64,000 nucleotides of DNA, taken from assembly GCF_003020585.1 (NCBI RefSeq), contig NZ_PXUE01000001.1, positions 992,001-1,056,000 of the forward strand. Direction: 5' to 3'. The stretch is from Chryseobacterium aurantiacum (lineage in GTDB: Bacteria > Bacteroidota > Bacteroidia > Flavobacteriales > Weeksellaceae). The first letter of the stretch is position 1, and each line of letters opens with the position of its first letter. Below are positions 43,639-61,661 of this stretch, one piece after another. The translations under genes and the position numbers were made by a program. The notes under the pieces were generated by a model. The model was given only the letters and a program-made list of their open reading frames with translations, was not told the DNA's origin and did no database searches.

Positions 43639-43801
43639 TGGATTTGATGCTATTCTTTTTCCTTAATTCAGTTACAGGCTTATACAGATGGGAAGCATTT
43701 ATTTCTCCTATTTTTTTAGAAATAGAAGCCACTGAAAATAAAACAGAGTCTGTAATGGTACATGAATTTATATTAAAGATATAGGATGTATAAAAAATAA
43801 A

Positions 43802-44353
43802 CTATGCGTTTAAATCTACAGCCACAGCTTGCGTTCGTCTACACATCCACCTCCTCAATCTCCACACCGGCAAATACACAAAAATCACAGATAAAATCCC
43901 AGCCAGTACACCCACCACCACAGCCATTGCCGTAGCATCCAGCTTATAATCCTTTGAGAAATTATACTGTCCTAAGAAAAGCATAGATAGTACGAGAGAA
44001 CAGGTAATGATTCCATGCAGAATACTCAGCTTGGTCATTAACCTTTTAATATTCAACTGTTCATCTACCGTAAACTCTATGACGCCTTGTCCGGCGGCAT
44101 CGGTTACTCTTTTGAGGATGTCAATGGTAAGGACAACAGGTAGAAATAAGGCCATAGGTAAGGTAAGACGAGCTAAATTCTGTTCCCCTGAAAAGAAATG
44201 GGTGTATCCCAATTCCTTGAAGCTTGCATAGGCGATAATGAAATTGAAAAATACATTCGGGAGGACATAGTAAATTGTCCGCTTCATGAGAAAGCGTTTG
44301 AGGGTGGTTTTTTTGAGCTTTTTGGGCGGCTTCGGCTTAAATTTCAATTTCAT
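43802..44353 (-). CDS. Small polytopic membrane protein, last gene of the lipid-synthase operon
   Basis: The ATG at 44353 overlaps the stop of the gene before it (ATGA) and gives 183 residues (MKLKFKPKPPKKLKKT). A longer frame upstream is less likely because of that overlap. A strongly basic start precedes about four membrane helices (VFFNFIIAYASF, LTLPMALFLPVVLTIDIL, LHGIITCSLVLSMLFLG, AMAVVVGVLAGILSVIFVYL) and a basic end. No family recognised. As the terminal member of the operon it could export or anchor the lipid product; this is inferred from position. Confidence 0.65.
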   Translation of the reverse strand: MKLKFKPKPPKKLKKTTLKRFLMKRTIYYVLPNVFFNFIIAYASFKELGYTHFFSGEQNLARLTLPMALFLPVVLTIDILKRVTDAAGQGVIEFTVDEQLNIKRLMTKLSILHGIITCSLVLSMLFLGQYNFSKDYKLDATAMAVVVGVLAGILSVIFVYLPVWRLRRWMCRRTQAVAVDLNA

Positions 44354-45603
44354 ACGGAGGCGGTCATAAGCGCGATGGCTTTCTCTTTTATAGTGGCGGC
44401 TTCCGCTTTGGGCAGGAAGTCTTCGTTGGACAAAAATATAAAATCCATCTGATGGTTGTAGGTACTCGTTGTCAAAGTGTTGGAGTTCAGCCATGGGAAT
44501 GCTACCGTTGGGCTGAAGATGGTTTCAACACTGAAGTTGTTGTAATCTCTTGGAATATTGATTTTACCCATATTGGAGAGGGTCACATCATGCCCGCCAT
44601 TACTGGATTTCATCATGGAGATCATACGGTCAACAATCGGGTGCATCTGTTCACCCATCCATAGAAGTTCTCTGGCTTCCATTTTTTCTATTTTCTGGAG
44701 AAGATCACTTTTAATCTGTCGGGCATTGTTGATCAGATCAGAGCTTCCTTTTTTTAAAGAAAGATCAACCGTTGGAGCAAAGGCAAATAAATGATCCTGC
44801 TTGATTTCTGGAATGAAATGACGAACATCTACCGGACTGATGACCTTACCCTTAGCGTCAGCTCCTTTTACTTCCTGAAATGCCTGCATGAATGCTGCAC
44901 AAAGTAAAGCATGTATAGAAACTCCGTTGGCCTTACATCTCTCAGTGATTTTTGAGGTAGTTTCAGGATCAAGTTTTCGGTGAAGCACATAATCTTTTCC
45001 TAGGTTTCTTTTTTTACTTTTTCGTTGGAGAAGAAAGAAGAACCTTGCAAAAAGGAGATATAGACTGGCTTTGTATTTCTTACTTTTTACGTTGAAATTC
45101 GGGGGTAGAAAATCATTGACTGAAGAGAACGCCTGATAAGGCTGCAGCTCAAAAGAGGGATTGTCCAGAAGCTGGAGAAGTTCCTGAATCAGAGTGACTC
45201 CTGTTGTTCCGTCAGAGATGCAGTGAGGGATTGCCCAAAAAATTTCAGAAATGTTTTCTCCTTTCACCCAAACTACTCGGGCAAGAGGTTGCTTTTTATC
45301 TTCAAACAGAACTTTCCATTCTTTTTGAGATTCCAGAAGCCAGTCCTGATCCGTTTTTCTTTCCACAATTCGGAGTGGGATAGGAGCCATTTCCTTTTCT
45401 TCTATAAAAAAAGGATATTTTTCAGTCTTGGTATCTATAACAGCTCTTAGTAATGGGTGTTTTTGCTGGATTTTTTCCAGAGCAGTCTTAAAGTTCTTCT
45501 CCGGAAGTTCTCCTTTTATTCTAGCGGCAAATACACAGTTTACGGGTGTTTCGGGATCTACATACATGATCCTTTCCACCATCATTAGTTTTCTTTTGAT
45601 CAT
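44350..45603 (-). CDS. Condensation-domain-superfamily acyltransferase (second of two)
   Basis: This 417-residue protein is in the CoA-dependent acyltransferase fold of NRPS condensation, PapA and alcohol acyltransferases. The active-site motif is H127-x3-D131 in IPHCISDGTTG, and a C-terminal VTLSNMGKINIP segment matches the fold. It has no carrier or adenylation domain. It probably transfers an acyl group from ACP or CoA to a hydroxyl of the sugar or lipid product. Four bases overlap (ATGA) with the related gene before it, with which it shares overall layout. Confidence 0.75.
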   Translation of the reverse strand: MIKRKLMMVERIMYVDPETPVNCVFAARIKGELPEKNFKTALEKIQQKHPLLRAVIDTKTEKYPFFIEEKEMAPIPLRIVERKTDQDWLLESQKEWKVLFEDKKQPLARVVWVKGENISEIFWAIPHCISDGTTGVTLIQELLQLLDNPSFELQPYQAFSSVNDFLPPNFNVKSKKYKASLYLLFARFFFLLQRKSKKRNLGKDYVLHRKLDPETTSKITERCKANGVSIHALLCAAFMQAFQEVKGADAKGKVISPVDVRHFIPEIKQDHLFAFAPTVDLSLKKGSSDLINNARQIKSDLLQKIEKMEARELLWMGEQMHPIVDRMISMMKSSNGGHDVTLSNMGKINIPRDYNNFSVETIFSPTVAFPWLNSNTLTTSTYNHQMDFIFLSNEDFLPKAEAATIKEKAIALMTASV

Positions 45604-46883
45604 GATACGGCTATATATTCCAATTGTACTTTAATGATCTGCATCACCTCGTCACGAATGGCCATGGCGTCGGTATAGGGTAAATATCCTTCACTTCCTA
45701 CAAAGGAAAAATCCATTTTTCCACGATAAGTAGAAATAACCAGCGTAGTTGTATTGCCCAATGGCCCAATAACAGACGGACTGAAAATGGTATCCACTGT
45801 AAACTCTTTATATTCATGAGGAATCTGAATGCGTCCCAGATTGGAAAACATGCAGTCGTTGGAAGATTTCCCGTTCTTTAACAGCTTTGTGAAATTAGTT
45901 AAAGCATCATGTCCGGATTCCATCACCATCATGGTAATATAAGGATTGAGCTTGGAAGTTTTACGTTCTACGGACGTTTGCATGGAGCGCAGGTTTTCCA
46001 GAAAGCTCATTTTTTCGTTGGAAGAAATTACAATCATTAATCCGAAGGCGAAGATATGGTCATTCTTGATCTGGGTTGCAAAGCGTCTGATGTCTACCGG
46101 ACAGGAAATTTTATTAAATGCGGATGAACCTTTTACCTTTTTAAATGCCTGAAGTAAAGCTGCACTTAAAAACGTGTTAACGGTCACTTCATTGGACTTG
46201 CAGTAGGAAATCAATTGTTGGCTTACTTTTTCATCTACTTTCCAATGGATCAGATAATCGTCCTGACGATCGACAGCTTTCTTGCCTACAGGAATGTATT
46301 TGATGGCTGTAGCTGTTAATCTGCCAATAAAACGGGCCTTCAGCTTTTGTCTGCGGCTGTTTAAAATATGGGAAGGAACTACATCCTGAATTCCCATGAT
46401 AGGCTGCTCTGCCCCAATATCTGCGGAAGGATTATCCAACACTTTTAAAAACTCATGAAGAAAAGCCATTGCAGAACCACCATCACATAAACAATGATGG
46501 AACGCAAATAGCATATCGGAAACTCCTTCTCCTTTGATCCATACAAAACGGATAAGGGGAAGTTTTTGATAATCAAATAGGGTATGCCATTCTCTTTTGG
46601 ATTCTTCCTGCCAATGATCTTCTCCTTTTCTAACCACAATACGAATGGGGATGGAAAGGGATTTCTCCGGAACATCAAACCAAGGGATATCTTTCTCATC
46701 ATGATTGATAAGAGCTCTTAACCAAGGGTGCTTGTTCTGAATTTGAACCAAAGCCTGCTGGATATCCTTTAATGCAAAGGTACCTCTCAGTCTGAAAGGA
46801 ATGACCGCGTTAAAAGGTTCTGTTCCGTCCCCTAATAACATGCGTTCCCCAAATAACAATCTTCTTTTTATAGGTTGATTCAT
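45600..46883 (-). CDS. Condensation-domain-superfamily acyltransferase (first of two)
   Basis: This 427-residue protein is a paralogue of the next gene: both start with a KRxLxxxERxx segment, then KHPWLRALIN. The motif HHCLCDGG has H130 and D134. The late CMFSNLGRIQIPHEYKEF corresponds to the DFGWG-side region of condensation folds. Three bases separate it from the glycosyltransferase gene. Two acyltransferases beside two glycosyltransferase units suggest acylation of two sites on the glycosylated product. Confidence 0.75.
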   Translation of the reverse strand: MNQPIKRRLLFGERMLLGDGTEPFNAVIPFRLRGTFALKDIQQALVQIQNKHPWLRALINHDEKDIPWFDVPEKSLSIPIRIVVRKGEDHWQEESKREWHTLFDYQKLPLIRFVWIKGEGVSDMLFAFHHCLCDGGSAMAFLHEFLKVLDNPSADIGAEQPIMGIQDVVPSHILNSRRQKLKARFIGRLTATAIKYIPVGKKAVDRQDDYLIHWKVDEKVSQQLISYCKSNEVTVNTFLSAALLQAFKKVKGSSAFNKISCPVDIRRFATQIKNDHIFAFGLMIVISSNEKMSFLENLRSMQTSVERKTSKLNPYITMMVMESGHDALTNFTKLLKNGKSSNDCMFSNLGRIQIPHEYKEFTVDTIFSPSVIGPLGNTTTLVISTYRGKMDFSFVGSEGYLPYTDAMAIRDEVMQIIKVQLEYIAVS

Positions 46884-46886
46884 AGG

Positions 46887-49289
46887 CTACACAGAAGCTA
46901 ATGTTGAATGTTCATGTACAAAATTTTCTAACAGTTCTACCGCTTTGTCATTTCCTCCGGCAAGCGTGAATGTATTGCGGACTTCCTGAGCGGCGACTCT
47001 GTATTTTGGATTTTCCAATAATTCAAAAACCGTTTCACGAAGAGCATCTACACGCAGTCTTTTGTATCGGATGCTGATTCCGCAGCCTGCCTGCTCAATT
47101 AATTTTGCAATATGAAAATGATCGTAAGCAATAGGCGTGATTAACATCGGTAATCCATTACGGAATGTATCATTAACGGTATTGAAACCACCGTGGCAGA
47201 TCACCATATCCATTTGCTGCATCACTGCGGATTGAGGGACGAAGCTGTTTACAATAAAATTATCCGGCCATTCTTCAAAGATTTCCGGTGGAGTAGCGGC
47301 AATGACGGTAACCGGTTGGTCAGCAAACGCTGCAATAATTTTTTCAAAGAAAGCTTTTCTGATGTCTACCAATAGTGTTCCCAGAGATACAAAGATCTTT
47401 GGAGTGGTAGAAGCGTTCAGTTTATCCCAGTCAAATGGGGCATCATTTGGACGTCCTTTTACCGGACCTACAAATTTCATATGAGAAGGAACGGTTTCAA
47501 ATCCGGCAAAGGCTTGTGAGGTAAACACCATATTCAGTTTATGAGAATGGATATAAATTCCTTCCTCATGAATTCCTACTTCTTTTTGCAGATCTTTGAT
47601 GAGGTTTTGCTGCCATTCCCAGATTTTAGGGGCACTTTTTTCGGTATCTCCCATTACGTCTGGTGGAACTGGGGTTGTCGTTACACAAGGAATATTATGT
47701 TTGTGGGCAAATAAAGCTCCTCCGAAAGTAATACAGTCATTCACAATTACATCCGGCATCCAGCTTTCTGTCAGTCTGGTTAATCCCGGCATCATCATTT
47801 TAGCGAAAGGAACATAGGTTTCTTCCAGTGCCAGTTTCATTACTTCAGGTCCGGAGCATGCAGGTCCGTCATCCTGTCTTTTTAAAATACGGGCAATTTC
47901 TTCCTGATACGGAATAAGGTCTTCTTCAGGGTAGAAATAAGAACCTCCTTCAGGAATATGTTTACTGTCTAAAGGAGTAATCCCGAACCATTTTACTTCA
48001 TGGCCACGGGCAATCAGGCTTGCTCCAACACTTAACGTAGGACTCACATGTCCGAAAAACGGAGGAATAACGAATAAAAATTTAGCCGGTTTTTCAGGTT
48101 TTGACGCCTTTGATATAGCCTGTTCCAATAGGTTGGCTGCTGTAGCCGCACCGCCTGCTTCTACAAACGACTGACCTACTTTCTTGGCCGCTTCTTTGTA
48201 GCTTGGATTATTTAAAATCTGTTGTACAGCTTCTCTGAGATGATTGGCTTTAAATCTATTGAAATTAAGACGCTCACCCGCTTCTGTACGCACCACACGT
48301 CCTGCCACGTGTGACTGGTCGTACGCAATAGGAATCACAACCAAAGGAATACCATTGGATAATGTTTCGGAAACTGTATTATGGCCACCGTGGCAAACCA
48401 CGCCATCAAGATGAGGTAAGAGATCCAATTGAGGAACCTGCTGGTACACCATAAAGTTATCGGGCCATTGCTCAAAAAGCTGTGGATCTGAAACCACTAC
48501 AACCGTTAAATCTTCATCCTTAAATGCATCCACTACCTTTTGGAAGAATGCCTTTTTATGATCATGATCGAAAGTGGTTCCGATGCTTACCAGAATCTTT
48601 TTATTGGTGGCGCCTTTTAACCGGTCCCAATCAAATTCACAGGAGATACGACGCTCTGTAAGAACGGGGCCTGTAAATTGGTACTGAGACGGCAGATCTT
48701 CCATTTCACCAAAGAAATAAGTAGAGGTTAAGACAAGGGTTAAAAGGTCAGAAGTAGCAAGTGAACGTTTTTCATTCACTCCCAACTCTTCCTGTAATGC
48801 AACAATTTGATTCACTTCCCATTCGTGTACCTTGGGCAGCTCATTCATGATTTTGATGGCAGCCGGAGCGGTAACGGAAGTGGCATACGGGATTCCTAAT
48901 GCTTTCGCAGCAACAGGAGCCGCAAATAGTTGGTGATCACCAATAATCAAATCGGGTTGATATGTTTTTAATAAAGCAACAATCCCCTTATAGCAATGTC
49001 TGTTCAACGGGATAAGAACCTCTTCGTAAAGGAACTTAACACTGTCGATTCCGTACACTACTTTTTTGGATATAATATCAAGGTATTGTTCGCTTTCTTT
49101 CTTTTCTTCGTCAGTCTGATCGTATTGGATCAGTAATAATTTTCCTCCCTCTGGAAGTTTAGCCTCTAAAGTAGGGTCAAGGCTGATCCAGGCTACTTCA
49201 TGTCCTCTTTCCAACAGAGTAGCACCGATGCTTAGGGTAGGGTTGACATGTCCTGTCAATGGTGGAACTATAAATGCAAATTTAGCCAT
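46887..49289 (-). CDS. Tandem family-1 glycosyltransferase (two complete units in one chain)
   Basis: At 800 residues this is two MGT/UGT-type GT-B enzymes joined with an offset of almost exactly 400. Unit 1 (1-390) starts FAFIVPPLTGHVNPTLSIGA with catalytic-type H14, and has the nucleotide-sugar site CHGGHNTVSETLSNGIPL (299-316). Unit 2 (402-790) starts FLFVIPPFFGHVSPTLSVGA with H414 and has CHGGFNTVNDTFRNGLPM (698-715). Both look intact. Such enzymes put sugars on lipids or polyketides. Two fused units may add two sugars in turn. It overlaps the hydrolase gene before it by eight bases. Confidence 0.88.
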   Translation of the reverse strand: MAKFAFIVPPLTGHVNPTLSIGATLLERGHEVAWISLDPTLEAKLPEGGKLLLIQYDQTDEEKKESEQYLDIISKKVVYGIDSVKFLYEEVLIPLNRHCYKGIVALLKTYQPDLIIGDHQLFAAPVAAKALGIPYATSVTAPAAIKIMNELPKVHEWEVNQIVALQEELGVNEKRSLATSDLLTLVLTSTYFFGEMEDLPSQYQFTGPVLTERRISCEFDWDRLKGATNKKILVSIGTTFDHDHKKAFFQKVVDAFKDEDLTVVVVSDPQLFEQWPDNFMVYQQVPQLDLLPHLDGVVCHGGHNTVSETLSNGIPLVVIPIAYDQSHVAGRVVRTEAGERLNFNRFKANHLREAVQQILNNPSYKEAAKKVGQSFVEAGGAATAANLLEQAISKASKPEKPAKFLFVIPPFFGHVSPTLSVGASLIARGHEVKWFGITPLDSKHIPEGGSYFYPEEDLIPYQEEIARILKRQDDGPACSGPEVMKLALEETYVPFAKMMMPGLTRLTESWMPDVIVNDCITFGGALFAHKHNIPCVTTTPVPPDVMGDTEKSAPKIWEWQQNLIKDLQKEVGIHEEGIYIHSHKLNMVFTSQAFAGFETVPSHMKFVGPVKGRPNDAPFDWDKLNASTTPKIFVSLGTLLVDIRKAFFEKIIAAFADQPVTVIAATPPEIFEEWPDNFIVNSFVPQSAVMQQMDMVICHGGFNTVNDTFRNGLPMLITPIAYDHFHIAKLIEQAGCGISIRYKRLRVDALRETVFELLENPKYRVAAQEVRNTFTLAGGNDKAVELLENFVHEHSTLASV

Positions 49290-50064
49290 GGTTCTTCGTT
49301 AAGATATTAGATAAAAACTGAGCGATCGTTTCCGCTATCAGATTAGGTTCCTGAATCGGAATATTGTGATCGCCGGGGATTAATTCAAGTTCGGACGAGC
49401 CTATTTGAGACTGCAGCCACTCTCCTGTAGGTCTGCAGTTGGACTCAGCACCGTAAAGCAATAATGTGGAAGCCTTCAATTCATTGAAATTAGCTTCATC
49501 AAGGAAATGCTTTTCCTTGATCATATCTGCCTTGATGCTGGTCTGGTTAAACAGAAATTCATACATACGATGGTTCTTTTCCATTTGTCTTTTACCCATC
49601 TGTACTTTGGTGGTGTCTGTAAAATTAGCGACGTAATGCTCAAGAAATTCTTTGCTGTACTCATCAATGATGTTACGGGCTTTTTCGTCCTGAGGATCCG
49701 GTGCTTCCATCACAACGAGCTGATTCACGCGGTCAGGGTATTCCAAAGCTGTTTTCAGGGCAATAAGACCTCCGAAGCTATAGCCTACAAGGTGTACTTT
49801 TTCCAGTTGAAGGTGATCTATTAAACCCATCAGATCGGATGACATGTTGTCAAGGTCGTATCCATCCAAAAAGCGTTCACTCATACCGTGACTTTTCAGA
49901 TCATACATCACCACATGGAAATGCTTGGCCAGCACAGGGGCAATATTAAAATAATAAATGGATAGGTTACTGAACATACCGTGGATGAGTACCACGGTTT
50001 GTTCGGCTCCTTTGTTGAGTTCCTGTATATGAACTTGTCTGTTATTGACAGTGATTATTGGCAT
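49282..50064 (-). CDS. Alpha/beta hydrolase, possible chain-release thioesterase
   Basis: This 260-residue protein has LIHGMFSNLS for the oxyanion loop, nucleophile S96 in VGYSFGG and base H233 in PGDHNIPI. The acid position is GAESNC (E207 or a nearby residue in place of the usual Asp). No signal peptide. In the operon it lies between the discrete ACP, which it overlaps by 10 bases, and the glycosyltransferase. It is a good candidate to release or transfer the acyl chain from ACP. Other esterase roles are not excluded. Confidence 0.7.
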   Translation of the reverse strand: MPIITVNNRQVHIQELNKGAEQTVVLIHGMFSNLSIYYFNIAPVLAKHFHVVMYDLKSHGMSERFLDGYDLDNMSSDLMGLIDHLQLEKVHLVGYSFGGLIALKTALEYPDRVNQLVVMEAPDPQDEKARNIIDEYSKEFLEHYVANFTDTTKVQMGKRQMEKNHRMYEFLFNQTSIKADMIKEKHFLDEANFNELKASTLLLYGAESNCRPTGEWLQSQIGSSELELIPGDHNIPIQEPNLIAETIAQFLSNILTKNHG

Positions 50065-50327
50065 TCGTAGATATAATTGATGATCATACTAAGGTCAAGA
50101 TTGATCAGCTGGTCAAGATCCATAGAAGACAGCCAACCTGTAAAGTCGATCTGATCGCCAAAATGCGCCTTGATCTTTTCAGAGAAAGAGACAATCTCGA
50201 TGCTGTCCATTTCAAGATCTTTGGTGAATGAACTTTCAGGAGTAATATCCATTTCTTCTACAAATTCAGCACCTATCACTTCAGTAATAAAACCTTTTAA
50301 TAAAGTAAAAAGTTCTTCGTGGTTCAT
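50055..50327 (-). CDS. Discrete acyl carrier protein
   Basis: This 90-residue protein, from the ATG at 50327 (MNHEELFTLLKGF), has the phosphopantetheine site EMDSIEIVSF with S42. An in-frame ATG at 50354 overlaps the end of the previous gene and would add nine residues. The rest is an acidic four-helix ACP. It differs from the two ACPs inside the large synthase (LSIDSIKR), so it may be loaded with a different acyl group, for example as donor for the acyltransferases or as an off-loading carrier. The gene overlaps the hydrolase gene. Confidence 0.85.
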   Translation of the reverse strand: MNHEELFTLLKGFITEVIGAEFVEEMDITPESSFTKDLEMDSIEIVSFSEKIKAHFGDQIDFTGWLSSMDLDQLINLDLSMIINYIYECQ

Positions 50328-50341
50328 TTTTAATGTTGCGT

Positions 50342-53300
50342 TTACAGTGTCCATCCGATAATATAATTTTTATGTTTAATAGTTTTGATTTCAATGTTGT
50401 TGATCCACAAGTGATCATCTTTTATAAGTTCGACTTCAAAGGCTTTAGGGTTTCCTTTGAGCCCTGTTCCGAGGAACTTTCCGTAGGCTTCCTTGGCTAC
50501 CCAGAAACGGGTGGTCCATTCTGCCTGATCTCTGTCTTTTAATAAGGCTAATTCTTTGTCGGTAAATACCATGTCATAGAATCCTGAACTGCGCTCTTCC
50601 ATCAGTTCCATATCAATTCCTACAGATTTTCCATATCTCGCGATTCCCACGGCTTCTTTTCCTTTGTGAGCCAAAGAAATATGGATGTCTTCTGTAAAAT
50701 CACTGATGAGGTAAGGTTTCCCCACTTCATCGGAACGGATTTCAAAGGTGATCGGGAAGCAGGCATGATTTTTTTCCTGACGAAGAAGATTTCTTACGGC
50801 ATCTTTCACGGCCACACGGCTTACCATCCAGTTTTTCTTTTTGTTGGGTAATAACTGCTGGTGATGCTGTTTTTCTGTTTGATTGAAATATCTTTTCAGG
50901 ATAAAATCCCATGAAGCTACTCTGGTGTAAGCCTGATGGAAGAAGAAAACTTCAGGAGCAATCTCTTCAGAAAGGCGGTTGTGCAATGGTGACATGGAAA
51001 CATTCCATAAAGGAGCGTCAATTTCAAGTCTTCTGTTTTGCCAGCCGGTGATGGCACACCAAACTTTTCCGTCTCTTTTCAGGATGATATCTGCGATGGC
51101 AAATTCATCATTAAGCTCGGTCAGCATACAGGTACATTCAAAAATACCTTCCTGATCATGCATATCTCCGAAGAATTCAATATCTCTGATTTTCACAGGG
51201 AATGCAATACGGTCCTTCACCAAAGTAAGCTGAAGCCAAAGCCCGAATAGTTGTCCTGCATTATCAAGCAAGGAACCTTTACCACCGTTTCCTTTTATTT
51301 TTCCGATGATTCCTTTGTCTCCAACAGCTGAAACTTCAGTAATTCCCTGATATTTTTCTCCGTGGAACATGTGCATGTCATAGATTTCTTCAGGGGTTCT
51401 TTCGATGGGTAAAAGATTACCGATGGAAAGGTTGAAAACTGGTGTAGGAACAGCTGAAGATTTCAATACAACTTCTGCGTTGACAAAGTTTTCAATATCC
51501 AAATAGGCGTGGTTTGAGGAACGCCATTCACCTTGTACTGTTTTTTCAAAAGGTTTGGCTACATTCATCCATTGGAATACACTTACATTCATGATTTTAT
51601 GAACCAGTGTTCCAGGGATTTCTGCTTCTGCGATTTCTGCAAGCTGCTCAAAAATCATGGTCATTGGAATAACTGGTTCCATATCTGCCACATGTGCCCA
51701 ACCTTTTGGCTGTCTCAATAAGCTGTGATCAATAAGGTAAGGATGACTTTCTAAGGTCACATACATCTCTTTAGAGAAAGTTGTGCTTCTCGGTACTTTT
51801 GGAACAACCTGTGTTGCCGGAGCATGAGCGGGACGTTGAATGGTGGTTTCCGGACGATTCTGGAATAAAGTAAGGACTTCTTCCTGCATACGGATCATAT
51901 CCGCCACATTGTCCTGAAATGCCTGTACCAGGGGGTGACCGCTTTTTGTGGCAATAGCTGAAGCTGTTGCTGTATATTGTTTTGGCGTATCAAAAGATTG
52001 AGCCAAAGCTTTTACTTCTTTAAAATTACGGATAATAGGAGAGCCTAATTCAAGCTTAATGCCTTTTCCTGATGGCTTTCTCGAATGATTTTGAATCTCC
52101 AGAAAATCAAGAGCAATTGTTTTTCCTTCTACAAATAATGAAGCGACTACACGTTGTAACTGAGCCAGGGCAGAACGAGTAGGAACACTGGAAGCAATGG
52201 TACTGAAAGCTTTCCCCTTCAATGTATCATCAATAAATCCGATAAGACCGCCAGTTCCGACTTGAATGAAGACTCTGGCGCCTTCTTCGTATAATTTATC
52301 CGTAAGTTCACGAAAACGAACAGGCTGTACCAAATGCTCGGCACTTAGTTTTCTGATCGCTGCCTGATCTGCAGGATAAGGTTCTAAAGTTGTAGCAGAC
52401 CATAATGGTATTTTTGTCTGCTGGAACTGTGCTTTTTCCATACCCGCAAGGATCACATCTAGTTTATCAGCGATAAAAGGGGAGTGGAATCCGGACTGGA
52501 ACGGTAATACCTGATGGAAGATCTGCTTTGATTTTAATAAAGGAACCAATTCATCCAATGCTGCATTGCTTCCGCAAAGAATCACCTGATTAGGGCAATT
52601 GTCATTGGAAACATAGAGGTTTGCAATTTCTGCAATAAAAGGTTTTATCACCTCAATTCCGGCTCCTATGGCAATGAACTTGGAATCTTTTAATTCAAAA
52701 GTTTCAGGATTCAGTACGTCAATTAAAGCTTTTACAGAGTTGGCTTCCGCTAATTCTGAAGAGTAACCGGCCAACCATTCTCCTAAACTGTGTCCTGCAT
52801 TCATATCAGGAATAATTCCCAATTTTTTCAGTGAATTATCAAGGATACTACAGTTGTTGAAGATATTTAAGGCATCTGTTAAAAGTCCTTCTCCTTCAGT
52901 TTCTATAGTTGCTGATAATCCAAAATAACGGCTTACCGTTTCTACTTCACCTTTTGCCAGACCATCTAAGCCTGGGAATACAAAGGCTACTTTACCACCA
53001 TCTTTTAATAATGGGGCAGAGGTGTACCAGATATCCTGTTTGTTTTTCCAGATGATATTTTTGGAAACAATTTTAATTGCTTTTTCTATTCTTGCTGGTG
53101 TCGGGTCAAATAGGGCAACCCTGAAATGTCCTTCACCAATGGTTGTTTCATTATTTTGTAATGCTGAAAGCAGTTCTTCATGCGTAGGTCTCGCGAGGAT
53201 TAATACATGGTCTTTTTTCGGCATATCATAGCCTTCCAGAACAACATGTGCATTAATTCCTCCAAATCCGAAAGCATTTACAGCGGCTACTTTTGGAAGC

Positions 53301-54601: not shown

Positions 54602-54620
54602 ACTTATTTTGTACAGAGGT

Positions 54621-57600
54621 TTACCAATTGTTTCCTGACATGATCAGCACCTGGCTTTCAGTTCCGTATTTTATCTCGTTAAGGAAGATTTCCTTTCCTT
54701 CATCCAATGGAATTAGGGAAATACCTCTACGTTCATATTCTGTTTCAAGGGTTGATGAAACCATTCCGGCACCTTTCCAGGGTCCCCAGTTGATGGAAAT
54801 CACTTTCCCTTTTAATTTTTTGTTTAAAGCATTGGCATAATCATCCAATACACTGTTGGCTGCAGCATAATCCGTCTGACCTTTATTGCCATATACGGAT
54901 GCTATACTTGAAAACAATACTACAAATTGACAATCTGTACGAAGTTGCTCAGCCAGTACACGTAGGGGCTTCACTTTGGTATCAAATACACGTCCGAAAG
55001 AGGATGTTGTCTTTTGCTTGAACAGTTTATCCTCTAAAAGACCTGCTCCATGAATAACTCCGTCCAAACGATTGTACTTTTCATAGATACTGCTGATCAG
55101 ATGGCTTAAGCTTTCTTCGTCACAAAGATCTAATGATTGATAAATGATGGTGTTTCCAAGCGCTTCCATATCACGTATTGTGCGTAGAATCTGATTGTTT
55201 TTGAAGATTTTTGTTGTTTCTTTTTCTATTTCAGCAGGAGAAGTGAATTTTCCGGATTTGATCAGAAATGCTCTGATTTCCTCTTTTGTTTTCATTCCTT
55301 CGAGTTCTTTTGCCGGAACTTCATTTCTTGGATCCGCAGATCTTCCTACCAGAATATAAGTACATGGATAGGCTTCAGACATGTGTTTTGCCAATTCTGC
55401 CGTGATTCCCTGTGCACCTCCCAATACCAAGACCACTGATTTCTGATCTAATTGAATGTGAGCTTCATTTAAACTTGTTGACAAAGGTGAGGGGATAATG
55501 TCTACTCTGTGTCTTTTTTCGTTTTTATAGATTACTTCAGCAGGTTTATCATTCGTCAATATTTCCTTTAAAGTAATTTCAGCGATGTGGTCTACTTCCT
55601 GAGGTGTACTTAAACTGATTAATCTGCAAGTGGTATGGTCAAATTCTCTTGCTAAGCTTTTGAAAAGCCCCGGATATCCTTGGTGATGACGTAATATGCG
55701 GGCATCCGTTACTTCCTGAAGATGGGCCGTAATATCAGAGATTAAATATACCCATTTTGCTTTGTCAAAATCCAGTTTTTTAATCAAATCAACATGATCA
55801 ATAATGCTTGGTTTATCTGTTGATGAGAATAAATCTAACATAATTAATCCGTCAAAATTTGAAAGATCCTTTTCCGTATCTACCAATTCTACGATGGCTC
55901 CATGTTTTTCCAGTTCGCTTTTGATCGCTGAGGTTTGCTTGTTTTCATCCTGAGTAATGGCAAAATGTTTTCCTTGCAAAACTTCAGTATTTTGTACTAA
56001 AGAAGCGTCTGTGGGAGTGATATCAAAACGAAGTCTTGATAGCCCATTATTTGTAGGCTCAGGAGTAGTGATTTCCTTTACTTCATCTTTTTTTTCGTTG
56101 GCTTCACCGCTCATTTCACTGATCCAGCTTGCTAATCCACGAAGTGTTTTAATCGCTGCCAGTTTTTCCATGACATCATCAGCTTGTTCAAGGTTCTCTC
56201 CAAAACCGATCTTGTTTTTAAGATCTGCTATGATCTCCATACGTTTGATGGAATCGATACTAAGATCTGCTTCTAAATCTAAGTCTAACCCTAGCATCTC
56301 TTTTGGATAGCCTGTTTTTTCACTTACGATATTCAGAATGGCATTTTGAAGATCTTCTAGTGATAATGCTGATGAAGTTTTTGGTTTTGAAGCTGTTGTT
56401 TCAGCTGTTGCTCCCTTTTTTTCAGGAGTTGTTGTCGGCTCTGCACCCGAAAATTCTGTAAGCCACGAAACCAATCCACTTAGGGTTTTTATCCCTGCTA
56501 ATTGTTCCATAACGGTGTCTTCGCTGGCATTGCCGTTGGATAATGTTCCCAATTCATTACGAAGAGTTCCGATGATCTCAACTCTTTTGATAGAGTCAAT
56601 ACTCAGGTCAGCTTCAAGATCCATTTCCATGCCCAGCATTTCCTGTGGATATCCTGTTTTATCGCTTACCACCTGTAATAATAATGATTTAATATCTCTT
56701 GTTGGAGATGGTTTCACAGCAACTGCAGAAGCAGCTACGGCAACTGTTCTTTCCTGATAAACGGGTTGTACAGGAATAGTACGTTCCGGAGCAGGAGCCT
56801 GCATTGGGGTGTTATAGACAGGCATTGGGTTTACCTGAGGATTCTGTCCCATAAAGGAAAGCATCACATCACGCTGTGCCTGTATCATTAATTTCATACT
56901 GTTCAAATATTCCTGCAACATACGTTCTGCTGTAGATAAGCTTTCCGGTGCAGGGGGCTGGGTATTATTAGTAAAATTGTTCATGGAAATAGGGGTTAAA
57001 ATGGGTAGTGCACCATTGGCAGGCAGTGTGCCTGTTGTCGGATGTGCAGCTTGTCCGTTAACACGCCAAATGGCGGGGCTTTTCTTGTAAAGTTCAGGCT
57101 GATTGATGTCTATAAGCTGAACACTTCGGCCATCGAAAAGTTTTTCAATATTGAAGATGCGCCCTGTTCCTAAATATTGAGCCAGCATGCAAAGCAAATG
57201 GGTAAATTTATTACGGCTGTTGTCTTCAACATATAAGGTCAACTGATCTTTTTCAATGCACGATTTTGCCAGTCCGGTAAGAACTTTTCCGGGACCTACT
57301 TCAATAAAGATTCTTGCTCCATCGTTATACATCGCTTGCATTTGCTCCACGAATCTTACGGGCTGTACCAAATGATCAGTCAGTCTTTCTTTGATTTCTG
57401 ATGGGCTCGACGGATATACCTCTGCTGTCGTATTAGACCATACAGGGATCTGCATTTCCTGAAAAGGAACGTCTTTTAATACATCAGCATATAGACCTTT
57501 GGATTTTGCCAAGAGAGGGCTGTGGAATGCACAGGCAACTTCAAGTTTCTTAGCAGAAATGCCCTCTTGTTTAAGGACTTCCAAGAGTTTGTTAATTGCC

Positions 57601-60600
57601 ACTGTACTTCCTGCAATAACACATTGAGCAGGAGCATTGAAGTTAACGGGATAGCATCCTTCTACGTTAGCAATAATCGGCTGTAAACGTTCATGGGTAG
57701 CACTTGCTGCCAACATAGAACCCGGATCTCCGCCTTCTACTGAATCTAAAATAGACTGGGCTCTCTGGATACTTAAATCTACCAATTGATCCTCTCCAAA
57801 TACACCTGCAAAACATAAAGCAGGTAATTCACCATAGCTATGACCTGCCAGCATGTCCGGAATAATTCCTAATGTTTCTAAGAATTTGGCTAATGCCAGA
57901 TCAACAATTCCTAAAAGAGGTTGTGCTAAACGGGTATCCTTAATGGTTTCCTTTTGCTGCTTTAAATCAGCCTCATTAAAAGTTTTTGATGGGAAAACTA
58001 CTTTTTCAAGTTCAGGATAGTCATCAATAAGCTTACGCATGGCCGGAAAAACGACAAATAAGTCACGGGCCATATTGATTCTCTGGCTCCCTTGTCCCGG
58101 GAATGTGAATGCTACTTTTCCTTCTTTTTTATTAACGGTGAAAGTATCTTTAGTCTCTATTCCAAGCAATACTAATTCTAACTTCATCATCAGATCCTCA
58201 GCGGTATCAGCAACAATACTGAACTGAATTGATTTTTCTGAGCTGATGCTTAAACTGTAAGCAATATCTTTTAATGGAATGCCATCATTAATTTCCAATA
58301 AAGCTTTGATCTGACTTGATTGTCCTTTGGCTTCTTCATAAGTATCCCCACGGAATACAAATAGTTCTGAAGGCCATGACTGCATCGCAATAGAATCATC
58401 TTGTTTTGGGTGGTTGGCAATGACCGTATGGAAGTTTGTTCCTCCAAATCCAAAGGCACTGATTCCTGCATAACGGTTCTTTTCAGTCCATAATCCTGTT
58501 TCTGAATGAAAAGAGAAAGGACTGGTTTGTGCGTTGTAATAAGCATTAGGTTTTTGTAGGTGAAGGGTTGGAGGCTTTACACCATGGTAAACTGCCAGGG
58601 AAGCCTTGATTAAACCAGCCAGTCCTGCAGCACACTTGGTATGCCCAATCTGGGTCTTCACAGAACCTAAATGAGTCTGCCCCGGTAAAGCACCAGAACG
58701 GCTGAATAGATTCGTTAAAGCGCTTAGTTCTGTTTTGTCTCCAACAACAGTTCCTGTACCGTGAGCTTCTACCAATCCTACAGATGCAGCACTGATTCCG
58801 GCTTGGGTATAAGCGCGTTCAAGAGCTCTTACCTGGCCAATTTTTCTAGGGGCCGTCAATCCAAGGGCTTTACCATCACTGGATCCGCCAACTCCTTTGA
58901 TCACCGAGTAAATACGGTCACCATCATTGATGGCATCTTCATATCTTTTTAAAATAAGGATGGCAATCCCTTCTCCAAGGGCGATCCCGTCTGCATCACT
59001 ATCAAATGTTGCACATCTTCCTTTTCTGGAAAGTGCGTGGGTACTTGAAAACATAAGGTAATCATTGATTCCGTTATGTAAATCTGCTCCACCGGCAAGA
59101 ACCATATCTGATTTGCCCAGCACGAGCTCCTGGCATGCCAGGTCAATTGCTGCCAAAGAAGATGCACAAGCTGCATCTACAGTAAAGTTTCTTCCTCCAA
59201 GATCCAGACGATTCGTAATCCTACCTGCGATTACGTTGGCTAAGATACCCGGGAATGAGTCTTCTGTGGTATGGGGGAATGCTTCCTTTACTTCTTCATG
59301 AAGTTCACCAAAAACTTGCTTATAATATCCTCTGAAACTATAGCTGTTAGCAAGGTCATTACCTCCTTCAGCACCTATAATTACAGAAATGTTGTCTCTG
59401 TTGATATGCTTTTCACCGTATCCGGCATCTTCCATTGCCCGTTTTGCAACCAATAATGTTAACAATTGGGTAGGTTCAATGGCCGCAAGGGATTGTGGTG
59501 GAATTCCGAACGCCAGTGGATCAAAATCTATTTTCGGGATGAATCCGCCCCATTTGGAATGGGAAACATCCGGTCCGTCTGAGTCTGGATTGTAATAAAG
59601 CTCCTTGCTCCATCTTTCATCCGGAACTTCTGTCACACTGTCTTTTCCAAGAATGATATTCCTCCAGAATTCTTCAAGATTTTTAGCTCCCGGGAAAATA
59701 CATTCCATTCCGACAATAGCAATGTCCAATGGTTTTTCGCTTGATACCGGCTCTTCCGATAATGTAGCATTTTGTATATAATTGTAATTATTTATGCTGA
59801 CATTCTGGTGAAGTTCTTCAAGGGAAAGAACTTTATTGTGCATTGTTGCAATCTGTCCTATCATGTACATTCCAAGGTCAAGCTGATTATCTTTTGGGAT
59901 GTTAACCAATTGATCTCCTTGGCGCTCTATACCTTTAGCAGCAATTCTTAAACGCCCTACGTTTAGTTTTTCCAATTGCTCCCATACTTCTTTCTTATCT
60001 GCTCCGGCTGCTAAAAGCTTAGCTTTTTCGGTATTGAAATGATGTGCAAAAGCTGTATTTAAACAACGGGTTTCGTGCCCGGGTGCTGTTTCTAATAAAA
60101 CGGTATCCTTGGCCTGCATAGCCTGTAGCTGGAACTCTTCCTGAATAGCACCGGTTTGTACGGCTTCCTGAGTATAGAGATAAGCAGTACCCATTAGTAC
60201 TCCTACTTTTACCCCTCTGGCAGCCAATGGAGCAGCCATAATAGAAACAAAAGCGGTTGAGAAGTCATTATGGATTCCACCTGCAAAAAATACACTGATA
60301 TTTTCCGGATGGTCTTCTTTTAAGATTCGTTCAATTTGCTTTTCCCAAAGAACCATGCTGGATAATGGACCCACATGGCCACCACATTCACGACCCTCAA
60401 AAATAAAATTTCTGGCTCCTTCTTTGAGGAAAATATCGAGTAGGGCAGGAGATGGAACGTGCAAGAATGTCTTTATTCCTGCTTTTTCAAATATTTTGGC
60501 CTGAGCTGGTCTTCCTCCGGCAATCAGAACTACAGGCGGTTTTGCTTCAAGAATGTATGAGGTTTGTTCTTCTCTTAATTCCTGAGGAGCAAATCCTAAA

Positions 60601-61661
60601 ATACCCACCCCCCATGTTTTGTTTCCTGCAAGCTCTTTAGTTTCCATTACTAAGGATTTTGCGGAATTACCTTTTAGTAGTGATAATGCTACAAAAGGCA
60701 AGGCTCCTGCTTCTGCTACGGCATTGGCAAATGAGGGAACGTCGCTTACACGGGTCATTGGTCCTTGTGCAATTGGATATTTTAGACCAAGTTCTTGAGC
60801 CAGAGGATTATTTTGGTCAATCACCTGAAGAGCTTTTGCTTGTTTTAAGTGGCCATACATGGCTTCCTTAAAGGCAAAAGTCATTTTTTTCAGCGTTTTG
60901 AATTCTTCATATAGATCTACGGCCAACGAAATATCTTGCCCCATAGGGATATAGCTTTTGCTAATGTCAAGACCTGTAAAGTATTCCTTAAGTTCTTCAC
61001 CATTGATATTCTCAGCCAGCACAGGAGAGTTAGGCCTCACAAGTACACGATGGTTAGCAATGATTTTAGTTTCTGTCCCATTCAGTTTTGAACATACATC
61101 TTTGATATCCTTAGGAACAGAGCTTTCCGGAAATAAGGCAAGCTGACTGTCCAAAACAATACCTGTTGCACCCAAGGCTTTTACAGCAGCAGCAGTGTGG
61201 AGTCCTATTCCTCCTTGTACCCATACTGGAATGCTTTGAATTTCTTTGATAATGCGCTGAAATAGTACAAATGTAGATTCATAGCCAATCTGGCCTCCTG
61301 CTTCATTTCCTTTGATAATAATTCCTTGCGCTCCGGATTGTTCAGCTTGTAGGGCTTCTTCCAGACTGCTTACCTGATAAATTAAGGTAAGGTTTGGGTT
61401 CTGGGCCATCAACATTCCTGCTGGAAGAATCGCAAAGGTCACTTTCTCAGGAATCTGAAGCAATGTAAGTTTTTCGTTAGAAATATAGATACCACAAGAC
61501 GGTATATCTAATTGGGCAAGTCGACATAAGGCTTCCTCGGCAGGCGCCAATTCGTGTCCCAAACTTAGAACGGGAAAGATACCTGCCTGATGCAATTTAG
61601 GCATAAGGTTGACATCCGGCCTTTCAAAAGGCGTTAGTCCAATAATGGTTAAGTTTTTCAT
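54621..61661 (-). CDS. Pfa-type lipid synthase, first chain: two NMO-like domains-KS-AT-ACP-ACP-KR
   Basis: The 2346 residues hold, in order: two nitronate-monooxygenase-like TIM barrels (1-250 and 285-560) like the PfaD enoyl reductase; KS (644-1085; C832, H967, H1007); AT (1183-1480; FPGQGSQ, S1275 in GHSYGE, H1380); a Pro/Ala-rich linker; ACP1 (S1690) and ACP2 (S1804), both LSIDSIKR; and a ketoreductase (about 1880-2346; GGAQGIT at 2081, Y2265, N2269). KS-AT-ACP-KR is the PfaA order. The first barrel reads GNEAGGQIG where the second keeps GRECGGHVG, so only the second has the catalytic-type His. With its partner it can do full reductive cycles. Confidence 0.9.
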   Translation of the reverse strand: MKNLTIIGLTPFERPDVNLMPKLHQAGIFPVLSLGHELAPAEEALCRLAQLDIPSCGIYISNEKLTLLQIPEKVTFAILPAGMLMAQNPNLTLIYQVSSLEEALQAEQSGAQGIIIKGNEAGGQIGYESTFVLFQRIIKEIQSIPVWVQGGIGLHTAAAVKALGATGIVLDSQLALFPESSVPKDIKDVCSKLNGTETKIIANHRVLVRPNSPVLAENINGEELKEYFTGLDISKSYIPMGQDISLAVDLYEEFKTLKKMTFAFKEAMYGHLKQAKALQVIDQNNPLAQELGLKYPIAQGPMTRVSDVPSFANAVAEAGALPFVALSLLKGNSAKSLVMETKELAGNKTWGVGILGFAPQELREEQTSYILEAKPPVVLIAGGRPAQAKIFEKAGIKTFLHVPSPALLDIFLKEGARNFIFEGRECGGHVGPLSSMVLWEKQIERILKEDHPENISVFFAGGIHNDFSTAFVSIMAAPLAARGVKVGVLMGTAYLYTQEAVQTGAIQEEFQLQAMQAKDTVLLETAPGHETRCLNTAFAHHFNTEKAKLLAAGADKKEVWEQLEKLNVGRLRIAAKGIERQGDQLVNIPKDNQLDLGMYMIGQIATMHNKVLSLEELHQNVSINNYNYIQNATLSEEPVSSEKPLDIAIVGMECIFPGAKNLEEFWRNIILGKDSVTEVPDERWSKELYYNPDSDGPDVSHSKWGGFIPKIDFDPLAFGIPPQSLAAIEPTQLLTLLVAKRAMEDAGYGEKHINRDNISVIIGAEGGNDLANSYSFRGYYKQVFGELHEEVKEAFPHTTEDSFPGILANVIAGRITNRLDLGGRNFTVDAACASSLAAIDLACQELVLGKSDMVLAGGADLHNGINDYLMFSSTHALSRKGRCATFDSDADGIALGEGIAILILKRYEDAINDGDRIYSVIKGVGGSSDGKALGLTAPRKIGQVRALERAYTQAGISAASVGLVEAHGTGTVVGDKTELSALTNLFSRSGALPGQTHLGSVKTQIGHTKCAAGLAGLIKASLAVYHGVKPPTLHLQKPNAYYNAQTSPFSFHSETGLWTEKNRYAGISAFGFGGTNFHTVIANHPKQDDSIAMQSWPSELFVFRGDTYEEAKGQSSQIKALLEINDGIPLKDIAYSLSISSEKSIQFSIVADTAEDLMMKLELVLLGIETKDTFTVNKKEGKVAFTFPGQGSQRINMARDLFVVFPAMRKLIDDYPELEKVVFPSKTFNEADLKQQKETIKDTRLAQPLLGIVDLALAKFLETLGIIPDMLAGHSYGELPALCFAGVFGEDQLVDLSIQRAQSILDSVEGGDPGSMLAASATHERLQPIIANVEGCYPVNFNAPAQCVIAGSTVAINKLLEVLKQEGISAKKLEVACAFHSPLLAKSKGLYADVLKDVPFQEMQIPVWSNTTAEVYPSSPSEIKERLTDHLVQPVRFVEQMQAMYNDGARIFIEVGPGKVLTGLAKSCIEKDQLTLYVEDNSRNKFTHLLCMLAQYLGTGRIFNIEKLFDGRSVQLIDINQPELYKKSPAIWRVNGQAAHPTTGTLPANGALPILTPISMNNFTNNTQPPAPESLSTAERMLQEYLNSMKLMIQAQRDVMLSFMGQNPQVNPMPVYNTPMQAPAPERTIPVQPVYQERTVAVAASAVAVKPSPTRDIKSLLLQVVSDKTGYPQEMLGMEMDLEADLSIDSIKRVEIIGTLRNELGTLSNGNASEDTVMEQLAGIKTLSGLVSWLTEFSGAEPTTTPEKKGATAETTASKPKTSSALSLEDLQNAILNIVSEKTGYPKEMLGLDLDLEADLSIDSIKRMEIIADLKNKIGFGENLEQADDVMEKLAAIKTLRGLASWISEMSGEANEKKDEVKEITTPEPTNNGLSRLRFDITPTDASLVQNTEVLQGKHFAITQDENKQTSAIKSELEKHGAIVELVDTEKDLSNFDGLIMLDLFSSTDKPSIIDHVDLIKKLDFDKAKWVYLISDITAHLQEVTDARILRHHQGYPGLFKSLAREFDHTTCRLISLSTPQEVDHIAEITLKEILTNDKPAEVIYKNEKRHRVDIIPSPLSTSLNEAHIQLDQKSVVLVLGGAQGITAELAKHMSEAYPCTYILVGRSADPRNEVPAKELEGMKTKEEIRAFLIKSGKFTSPAEIEKETTKIFKNNQILRTIRDMEALGNTIIYQSLDLCDEESLSHLISSIYEKYNRLDGVIHGAGLLEDKLFKQKTTSSFGRVFDTKVKPLRVLAEQLRTDCQFVVLFSSIASVYGNKGQTDYAAANSVLDDYANALNKKLKGKVISINWGPWKGAGMVSSTLETEYERRGISLIPLDEGKEIFLNEIKYGTESQVLIMSGNNW

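What the first reader, a model, noticed from the sequence alone, without database searches (positions are those of the whole stretch)
43802..61661. An 18-kb operon that looks like a glycolipid factory built on a two-chain Pfa-type synthase
Eight minus-strand genes, nearly all overlapping or within 20 bases of each other, encode a reductive megasynthase pair, a discrete ACP, an alpha/beta hydrolase, a fused double glycosyltransferase, two HxxxD acyltransferases and a membrane protein. The domain set supports making a reduced long acyl chain, releasing it, glycosylating it and acylating the sugar. Heterocyst glycolipid and PUFA synthases share the KS-AT-ACP-KR core (established), but I know of no described product for this gene set. 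Two sugars and two acyl groups per molecule is inferred from gene counts.
Basis: partly seen in the sequence, partly recalled or inferred. Interest (0 to 1): 0.88.

Follow-up and report, generated by a model that had tools for sequence, protein, structure and literature searches.

The report
Uncharacterised glycolipid assembly-line operon
Eight tightly packed genes in a Chryseobacterium-like bacterium, recognisable in the same order in 77 of the 80 closest related loci examined, encode a long-chain acyl synthase with sugar-attaching and acyl-attaching enzymes and are predicted to make a sugar lipid of still unknown structure.

Summary
The operon is real. Eight minus-strand genes (43802-61661) overlap or lie within 19 bases of each other. 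All are recognisable in this order in 77 of 80 named Bacteroidota loci, the best 80 of 172 found. The synthase is not canonical Pfa. Its nearest relative found with a known product type is the Ars (Type P) phenolic-lipid synthase: gene 1 is 35% identical to the Beijerinckia ArsA-type protein from residue 115 on, and the end of gene 2 matches its DH-PPTase. KS1 groups with that protein; KS2 weakly with PfaC. The type III PKSs of ars are absent; a second KS-AT and a free ACP are present instead. Two Streptomyces plasmids carry the same five-gene core with one glycosyltransferase and a methyltransferase. I predict an acylated diglycosyl long-chain lipid. It is probably Shulse and Allen's 'Type N' (2011), and antiSMASH apparently flagged it as hglE-KS in C. 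herbae. Ten searches of open-licence papers showed no product.

The parts
61737..61886 (-). leader mini-ORF (49 aa here, 52 aa in 20 relatives) whose first 16 codons nearly copy the first 16 codons of gene 1
54621..61661 (-). gene 1, 2346 aa: two FabK/PfaD-type reductase domains, KS1, AT1, ACP, ACP, KR
60852..61661 (-). first reductase-like domain, probably inactive: the His site is replaced in 78 of 80 loci (Gln here)
59811..60803 (-). second reductase domain (PF03060, nearest solved relatives FabK), His kept in 80 of 80 loci
58242..59726 (-). KS1, active-site Cys-His-His intact, groups with ArsA-type proteins
57255..58109 (-). AT1: Ser and the FabD-type malonate Arg in 80 of 80 loci, His in 79 of 80 by pattern
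56142..56699 (-). two tandem ACP domains (approximate limits), DSIKR motif twice in 80 of 80 loci
54774..55436 (-). KR domain
50342..54601 (-). gene 2, 1419 aa: KS2, AT2, dehydratase, PPTase
53210..54592 (-). KS2, Cys-His-His intact, weakly with PfaC KS
52202..53014 (-). AT2: Ser and His present, but no Arg at the malonate site and GQG changed to GLD
50957..51814 (-). dehydratase (PS-DH type) region, homologous to the DH of the Beijerinckia DH-PPTase
50357..50854 (-). PPTase domain with the hShxH motif reported for Types M-T
50055..50354 (-). discrete ACP, 99 aa
49282..50064 (-). alpha/beta hydrolase, 260 aa, predicted chain release
46887..49289 (-). fused double glycosyltransferase: first half 48099-49289, second half 46887-48098
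45600..46883 (-). PapA5-like acyltransferase 1 (HHCLCDG)
44350..45603 (-). PapA5-like acyltransferase 2 (HCISDG)
43802..44353 (-). membrane protein predicted as four helices, 183 aa (corrected start)

Best explanation
The eight genes at 43802-61661 encode an Ars-related type I acyl synthase, an ACP, a hydrolase, a double glycosyltransferase, two PapA5-like acyltransferases and a membrane protein, and together they are predicted to build a saturated long-chain lipid that is released, likely given two sugars and then acylated. Step 1 (inferred from domains): the PPTase at the end of gene 2 arms the ACPs. Step 2 (inferred by homology to the Ars, Type P, synthase): KS1, malonyl-specific AT1, KR and the second reductase domain of gene 1 work with the dehydratase of gene 2 to elongate and reduce the chain iteratively. 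Step 3 (inferred): where ars hands its chain to type III PKSs, the KS2-AT2 half of gene 2 and the free ACP take over; AT2 lacks the malonate-binding Arg, so it likely moves the finished acyl chain instead of malonate, and a last condensation left at the hydroxyl or keto stage could leave the attachment point for the sugar. Step 4 (inferred): the alpha/beta hydrolase releases the chain, the first glycosyltransferase half adds the first sugar and the second half the second. Step 5 (inferred): the acyltransferases esterify sugar hydroxyls. The role of the membrane protein is unknown. Shown directly: gene order and its conservation, domain content, catalytic residues and homologies. No chemical step was tested.
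For: Order: all genes recognisable in 77 of 80 loci, the best 80 of 172. Gene 1 versus the Beijerinckia ArsA-type protein: 35% identity from residue 115 on, 94% of the query covered. Gene 2 residues 941-1417 versus its DH-PPTase: 27%. KS tree: KS1 in one group with the ArsA-type pair (98/94), KS2 with PfaC-type KS (93/79). AT1 Arg in 80 of 80 loci; AT2 Arg in none of 79 loci readable. The same five-gene core is on two Streptomyces plasmids. Two relatives fuse the hydrolase to a glycosyltransferase, which couples release to glycosylation. The only solved relative of acyltransferase 2, and the better of two for acyltransferase 1, is PapA5, an acyl-to-hydroxyl transferase (its reaction recalled). 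C. herbae pc1-10, whose genome carries the operon (L038), has three glycolipids by thin-layer chromatography (PMC10459008 passages).
Against: No lipid has been tied to the operon. The C. herbae glycolipids were seen by stain only and may come from other genes. The sequences of A. vinelandii ArsA and ArsD were not compared; the link runs through Beijerinckia, which Shulse and Allen class as Type P but say has not been found to make phenolic lipids. The glycosyltransferases are closest to YjiC/OleD-like enzymes that also glycosylate phenols and macrolides (recalled), so the acceptor is not fixed. Gene 2's own N-half has no ketoreductase, so the oxidation state after KS2 is open. KS2's tie to PfaC is weak and long branches meet there; the tree used a simple model, and one Bacteroidota PfaA-like row (G190) fell outside the PfaA side. 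No transporter is among the eight genes. Acyltransferase and glycosyltransferase numbers vary among relatives, so no fixed product formula follows.
Confidence: 0.55

Rival explanations
1. The product is a phenolic or pyrone glycolipid: KS2 adds unreduced acetate units to the finished chain, a ring forms, and the glycosyltransferases attach sugars to the ring hydroxyls.
For: The nearest system found with a known product type makes phenolic lipids. The glycosyltransferase family commonly uses phenols (substrate range recalled). The Streptomyces version has a methyltransferase next to the glycosyltransferase.
Against: No type III PKS and no separate cyclase recognised among the eight genes. The only dehydratase-fold domain found in the pair is needed for chain reduction. 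AT2 lacks the malonate Arg, which argues against repeated malonyl loading by gene 2 itself.
Confidence: 0.2
2. The synthase supplies acyl groups to a sugar core: the two glycosyltransferases make a disaccharide and the PapA-like enzymes transfer synthase-made chains from the free ACP onto it, giving a polyacyl sugar without a glycosidic lipid tail.
For: PapA5 is the only solved relative of acyltransferase 2 and the better of two for acyltransferase 1; transfer of ACP-bound chains by PapA5 is recalled, not from a call. Acyltransferase number varies 2-3.
Against: The Streptomyces core keeps synthase, hydrolase and one glycosyltransferase with no acyltransferase annotated beside it, so acyltransferases seem not to be needed for the core reaction.
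Confidence: 0.15
3. The synthase makes a PUFA-like or plain fatty acid for membrane phospholipids and the other genes serve something else.
For: Gene 1 passes the PfaA model cut-off.
Against: The genes stay together in 77 of 80 loci; two ACPs, no chain-length factor and the other PPTase motif; hydrolase-glycosyltransferase fusions.
Confidence: 0.06

Closest known systems
Ars (ArsA/ArsD) synthase of alkylresorcinol/alkylpyrone biosynthesis (Shulse-Allen Type P; compared through Beijerinckia indica pBIND02 and Methylosinus sp. C49, not through A. vinelandii itself)
   Same: Reductase domains + KS-AT-ACP-KR in one chain; DH-PPTase in the other; KS1 in the same group; first reductase His lost and second kept in both.
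   Different: The Beijerinckia cluster has two type III PKS genes between the two chains and no KS-AT on the DH-PPTase protein; here a second KS-AT, a free ACP, a hydrolase, two glycosyltransferases and two acyltransferases.
Streptomyces plasmid cluster (NBC_01243, NBC_00984; no product found)
   Same: Gene 1 (40%), gene 2 (36%), ACP, hydrolase, one glycosyltransferase in the same order.
   Different: One glycosyltransferase, a SAM methyltransferase next to it, no acyltransferase and no membrane protein annotated beside it.
Secondary lipid synthase Type N (Chitinophaga pinensis, Chryseobacterium gleum; PMC3098273)
   Same: Genus Chryseobacterium, adjacent PPTase, P1b' motif and no P0 motif.
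   Different: Its figure is not held and C. gleum was not retrieved by name, so identity is probable, not shown; product unknown there too; sugar and acyl genes not mentioned in the sections read ('glycosyl' occurs nowhere in the main text).
Canonical Pfa synthases (EPA/DHA; Types A, B, D)
   Same: PfaA model over cut-off for gene 1; KS1 and KS2 fall on the PfaA and PfaC sides of the tree.
   Different: Two ACPs instead of 4-6, no CLF, other PPTase motif, reductase fused to gene 1.
Heterocyst glycolipid (hgl) synthase, Type F
   Same: Long chain plus sugar, as a way of working.
   Different: Type F has KS-CLF-AT in HglC and no DH; here no CLF and a DH; no named hgl sequence was compared.
PapA5 and MGT/YjiC/OleD glycosyltransferases
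   Same: HxxxDG acyltransferase family and GT1 MGT family by sequence.
   Different: Substrates unknown here; the glycosyltransferase is a tandem fusion.

Membership tests
Shulse-Allen Types M-T (incl. N) secondary lipid synthases | PPTase next to the synthase, P1b' motif hShxH instead of P1b | tested here: met
   ISLAH in the window; hShxH in 80 of 80 loci, P1b in 0 of 80 (definition)
Shulse-Allen Types M-T (incl. N) secondary lipid synthases | no P0 motif hRxhLS | tested here: met
   absent in the window and in 78 of 80 loci; 2 loci, and Beijerinckia, match my loose pattern
Type N proper | same cluster as in C. gleum ATCC 35910 and Chitinophaga pinensis | not tested
   neither genome was retrieved by name; the figure with domains is not held
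Ars (Type P) phenolic lipid system | ArsA-like chain with N-terminal reductases, KS, AT, ACP, KR | tested here: met
   35% from residue 115 on against the Beijerinckia protein; KS1 in the same 14-row group, 98/94, a three-way fork
Ars (Type P) phenolic lipid system | ArsD-like DH-PPTase | tested here: met
   as the C-terminal half of gene 2, 27% against the Beijerinckia protein
Ars (Type P) phenolic lipid system | type III PKSs in the operon | tested here: not met
   none among the eight genes
Canonical Pfa (EPA/DHA) synthase | PfaA model TIGR02813 over cut-off | tested here: met
   1054.6 against 1010.1; canonical reference 2170.4
Canonical Pfa (EPA/DHA) synthase | 4-6 tandem ACPs and KS-CLF in PfaC | tested here: not met
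   two ACPs; one KS and an AT in gene 2
Heterocyst glycolipid synthase (Type F) | HglC KS-CLF-AT and no DH | tested here: not met
   no CLF and a DH present (definition)
Heterocyst glycolipid synthase (Type F) | KS clusters with HglE | not tested
   no named HglE was among the records fetched; one cyanobacterial row of unknown product grouped with an enediyne PKS
PapA5-type acyltransferases | HxxxDG active site and PapA5 as nearest solved relative | tested here: met
MGT/GT1 glycosyltransferases | MGT model TIGR01426 over cut-off, N-terminal His and HGG motif in both halves | tested here: met
   390.4 for both halves summed against 260, halves not scored apart; His in 79 of 79 loci for each half; HGG by pattern in 72 of 79 loci (first half) and 79 of 79 (second half)
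Glycolipid biosynthesis | a glycolipid is lost when the operon is removed | not testable with these tools
   needs a mutant

The most novel reading that the evidence does not exclude
A cross-phylum family of glycolipid pathways in which an Ars-type fatty acid synthase lacks the type III PKS head-builders and instead carries a second KS-AT on the DH-PPTase chain, with a dedicated free ACP, giving a new class of acylated diglycosyl long-chain lipids in Chryseobacterium, Flavobacterium, Sphingobacterium, Pedobacter and Mucilaginibacter and a one-sugar, methylated form in Streptomyces; the same lipid could account for the surfactants of Sphingobacterium detergens, which carries the operon.
Probability: 0.35. 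Interest if true: 0.75.

Novelty: new variant of a known kind. Interest (0 to 1): 0.55.

Why it matters
If right, genera common in soil, plants and water (recalled) make an undescribed sugar lipid, and the genes to remove are named. It would assign a product to a synthase type listed as uncharacterised in 2011. It also gives a natural comparison, ars with a type III PKS against this with KS2-AT2, for how iterative synthases hand off a finished chain. A carrier already studied for its surfactants, S. detergens, makes the test direct.

Tried and rejected
Canonical PUFA synthase: rejected on ACP number, missing CLF, PPTase motif and model score. Heterocyst glycolipid synthase: rejected on domain make-up; no named HglE was compared. 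Ars phenolic lipid operon: rejected because no type III PKS is present. GC shift (seven genes 0.40-0.43, ACP 0.36; upstream 0.30, downstream 0.36) as a sign of recent transfer: the same direction holds in all eight relatives examined in that call, so not used. A Bacteroidota-type promoter (TTG-N17-23-TAnnTTTG, recalled) was not found in the 420 bases upstream of gene 1 in the window, though matches appear in other loci, mostly L034-L062; left open. Rfam on 43000-63000: no match at gathering threshold. Glycolipid identity of S. detergens surfactant: one review passage says fraction A is phospholipid and fraction B a polar lipid mixture (PMC7956807), another paper calls it glycolipid (PMC8009627); unresolved. 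A 2026 paper on PUFA-synthase hybrids held no mention of Bacteroidota or Chryseobacterium (PMC13291983, term search). My first motif count for AT1 used a wrong spacing and found none; recounted. The first alignment used a wrong ORF as FabD; the right FabD was read by eye. The first ER1 counts were unreliable; redone by alignment. A row I named 'hglElike' is only a cyanobacterial PKS of unknown product, and 'ArsA' there is my label for the Type P-like proteins of Beijerinckia and Methylosinus. The structure models could not be compared with libraries.
Full report
Observation. Eight minus-strand genes run from 61661 down to 43802 with gaps of +19, -13, -10, -8, +3, -4 and -4 bases. The last gene, listed as 230 aa, is more likely 183 aa: in relatives it starts at the ATG that overlaps the previous stop by four bases. 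Upstream lies a glutaminase gene and downstream a PlsC-type acyltransferase gene; neither is treated as part of the operon.

Domains. Gene 1 (2346 aa) has two nitronate-monooxygenase/FabK-type domains, KS, AT, two ACPs and KR; gene 2 (1419 aa) has KS, AT and a PPTase by Pfam. The dehydratase of gene 2 is below threshold in the window but is called as PS-DH in the Streptomyces homologue of gene 2 and in the Beijerinckia and Methylosinus proteins that align with its C-terminal half; a model of this region has long helices and strands in a pattern that would suit a double hot-dog (mean pLDDT 74; not compared with a library). The remaining genes are an ACP, an alpha/beta hydrolase, a tandem MGT glycosyltransferase and two acyltransferases. 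PapA5 is the better of two solved relatives for the first acyltransferase and the only one for the second. The last gene is predicted as four helices (mean pLDDT 78).

Distribution and order. A genome scan found 172 relatives of gene 2 and kept the best 80: Chryseobacterium 44, Pedobacter 21, Sphingobacterium 7, Mucilaginibacter 5, Flavobacterium 2, one unnamed Sphingobacteriaceae. All further counts are on these 80; the other 92 were not seen. In 77 of 80 every gene is recognisable and in order; L023 and L051 are cut by contig ends, and L075 lacks a recognisable membrane gene. The two glycosyltransferases are one fused protein in 52 loci (all Chryseobacterium, Flavobacterium or Sphingobacterium), two genes in 27 (Pedobacter, Mucilaginibacter and the unnamed one), and unreadable in L051. 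Five loci (L048, L049, L065, L067, L081) have three full acyltransferases; in L078 and L083 the first acyltransferase is in two pieces, and in L027 the membrane gene is. Within the genus 21 of 36 genomes, this one included, carry a full-length gene 2, and none of 23 from other families of the order; in a sample of the class 2 of 395, this one included. In a phylum sample of 296 genomes searched with the PfaA model, four, this one included, had both a gene-1-like (698-710 bits) and a gene-2-like (373-389 bits) match. The operon is therefore patchy.

Catalytic residues, counted in the 80 loci. KS1 Cys and both His in 80 of 80; KS2 Cys and first His in 80 of 80, second His in 79 of 80 by pattern. 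AT1 keeps Ser and the Arg that in FabD holds the malonate carboxylate (role recalled) in 80 of 80, and its His in 79 of 80 by pattern. AT2 keeps Ser and His in 79 of 80 each by pattern but has no Arg at that site in any of the 79 loci that could be read, and its GQG is GLD in 79 of 80. The second reductase domain has its His in 80 of 80; the first has another residue there in 78 of 80. ACP serines are kept in 80 of 80. Both glycosyltransferase halves keep the N-terminal His in 79 of 79; the HGG pattern was found in 72 of 79 loci for the first half and 79 of 79 for the second. HxxxDG is in 78 of 79 second acyltransferases and in 84 of 86 first-type frames, the frames counting the broken pieces.

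What the synthase is. tblastn of 72,556 plasmid records found gene 1 relatives covering at least 80% of the query in five records. In Beijerinckia indica pBIND02, from a strain that Shulse and Allen class with Azotobacter vinelandii as Type P, a 2674-aa protein matches gene 1 at 35% from residue 115 on, followed by two type III PKS-like genes (annotated as KAS III C-terminal domain proteins) and a 629-aa DH-PPTase that matches gene 2 residues 941-1417 at 27%. That the two middle genes are type III PKSs is read from the ars gene order, not tested. A. vinelandii ArsA makes C23-C25 fatty acids and ArsD is described as a PPTase (PMC4824345, passages); their sequences were not fetched. Shulse and Allen add that this Beijerinckia has not been found to make phenolic lipids. 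Methylosinus sp. C49 has a like layout with one such middle gene. So gene 2 looks like a DH-PPTase joined to a KS-AT. On Streptomyces plasmids NBC_01243 and NBC_00984 gene 1 (40%), gene 2 (36%), ACP, hydrolase and glycosyltransferase follow in the same order, then a methyltransferase. In a search seeded with the Streptomyces gene 2 the 120 hits listed, out of 3999, all carry KS, AT and PPTase domains, and those named are nearly all Streptomyces. The single Streptomyces glycosyltransferase is closer to the first half (33.8%) than the second (28.7%), and the halves are 37.5% alike, which suggests duplication from one ancestral enzyme. Two relatives of unnamed origin fuse the hydrolase to a glycosyltransferase.

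KS tree (44 rows). KS1 with Streptomyces KS1 100/99; these with the ArsA-type pair and a Rhodobacteraceae row 98/94, a three-way fork; all within a PfaA-side group 90/78. KS2 with Streptomyces KS2 100/99, with PfaC-type KS 93/79. The two deeper supports are weak, long branches meet there, the Streptomyces KS2 rows have unusual composition, and one Bacteroidota PfaA-like row (G190) fell outside. The model was LG+G4 without mixture. References were a Persicobacter cluster laid out like Type D, Streptomyces, Rhodococcus and Embleya PfaA-like proteins, an enediyne PKS, modular PKSs and the genome's FabF. No named HglE was among them. PfaA-model scores fall in line: Persicobacter 2170, Streptomyces NBC_00503 1993, Rhodococcus 1706, Embleya 1193, Beijerinckia 1156, window 1055, Streptomyces plasmid 899, enediyne 509; cut-off 1010. 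Gene 2 scores 461, its best model but under the cut-off. The PPTase motif hShxH, which Shulse and Allen give for Types M-T, is in 80 of 80 loci and the A-L motif in none.

What is in print. Shulse and Allen (PMC3098273; section 5 part 1, sections 6, 7, 8 and passages read) list Type N from Chitinophaga pinensis and Chryseobacterium gleum with no known product. Their domain figure is not held and C. gleum was not retrieved by name, so I call the identity probable. In C. herbae pc1-10 (PMC10459008, passages) antiSMASH region 2.2 'hglE-KS, T1PKS, terpene' at 495,527-554,653, with no similar known cluster, covers our L038 (512,548-536,777 of that strain's NODE_2; matching region 2.2 to NODE_2 is my inference from the number 2); the same paper reports three glycolipids without naming them in the passage seen. 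Searches: in open-licence papers only; some of the ten were aimed at relatives (ars, Frankia, S. detergens), and no product for this gene set was seen in the listings or passages.

Mechanism. I commit to an Ars-like saturated chain that is passed to KS2-AT2 and the free ACP, released by the hydrolase, glycosylated twice and acylated. Order, domains, residues and homology are shown; every chemical step is inferred. The main rival is a phenolic or pyrone head made by KS2.

Leader mini-gene. At 61737-61886, 225 bases upstream of gene 1, lies a 49-codon ORF whose first 48 bases match the first 48 bases of gene 1 at 41 positions, against a maximum of 28 in 500 shuffles by two-base blocks. In 20 loci it is an ORF of exactly 52 codons. 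Differences by codon position are 0.095, 0.076, 0.247 for codons 1-16 and 0.312, 0.323, 0.419 for codons 17-52 (gene 1: 0.03, 0.017, 0.193 and 0.202, 0.105, 0.378); mean dN and dS are 0.119 and 0.572 for codons 1-16 and 0.408 and 1.004 for codons 17-52. It thus appears to be under selection, more clearly in its first part, where copying from gene 1 could also keep it alike. A copy of at least 33 of 48 matches is present in 26 of 77 loci that could be tested, all 26 Chryseobacterium. A protein search of the genome found only the ORF itself; the next places, gene 1's own start (E 0.43) and one other (E 0.49), are at chance level. A regulatory leader peptide is my guess.

Noticed in passing
window 61737-61886, minus strand; about 224-259 bases before gene 1 in 26 Chryseobacterium loci: A leader mini-ORF (49 aa here, exactly 52 aa in 20 loci) begins with a near copy of the first 16 codons of the synthase gene and shows a coding signal; function unknown, possibly regulatory.
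   Followed up: partly
window 60852-61661 (first reductase domain of gene 1): A tandem reductase pair in which the first copy has lost the catalytic His in 78 of 80 loci while the second keeps it in 80 of 80; the same holds in the Beijerinckia, Methylosinus and Streptomyces proteins, so an apparently inactive partner domain has been kept across phyla.
   Followed up: partly
P0189, P0190: Proteins that fuse the operon's alpha/beta hydrolase to a glycosyltransferase; source organism not named.
   Followed up: no
L127 (Rhodobacteraceae bacterium SC52 plasmid): A related synthase with a citrate-synthase-like protein, a TauD-type oxygenase, a methyltransferase and an AT-DH-PPTase protein; another unassigned cluster.
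   Followed up: no
L052 (Sphingobacterium detergens): The operon is in a species studied for its surfactants, whose polar lipid fraction was not tied to genes in the passages read.
   Followed up: partly
window 10120-13770: Urease alpha-subunit and UreF genes, part of what looks like a urease cluster.
   Followed up: no
window 43802-61661: Seven of the eight genes are 0.40-0.43 GC (ACP 0.36) against 0.30-0.37 around, and all eight relatives examined show the same direction.
   Followed up: partly
L078 and L083: The first acyltransferase gene is in two frames in these two Pedobacter loci.
   Followed up: no
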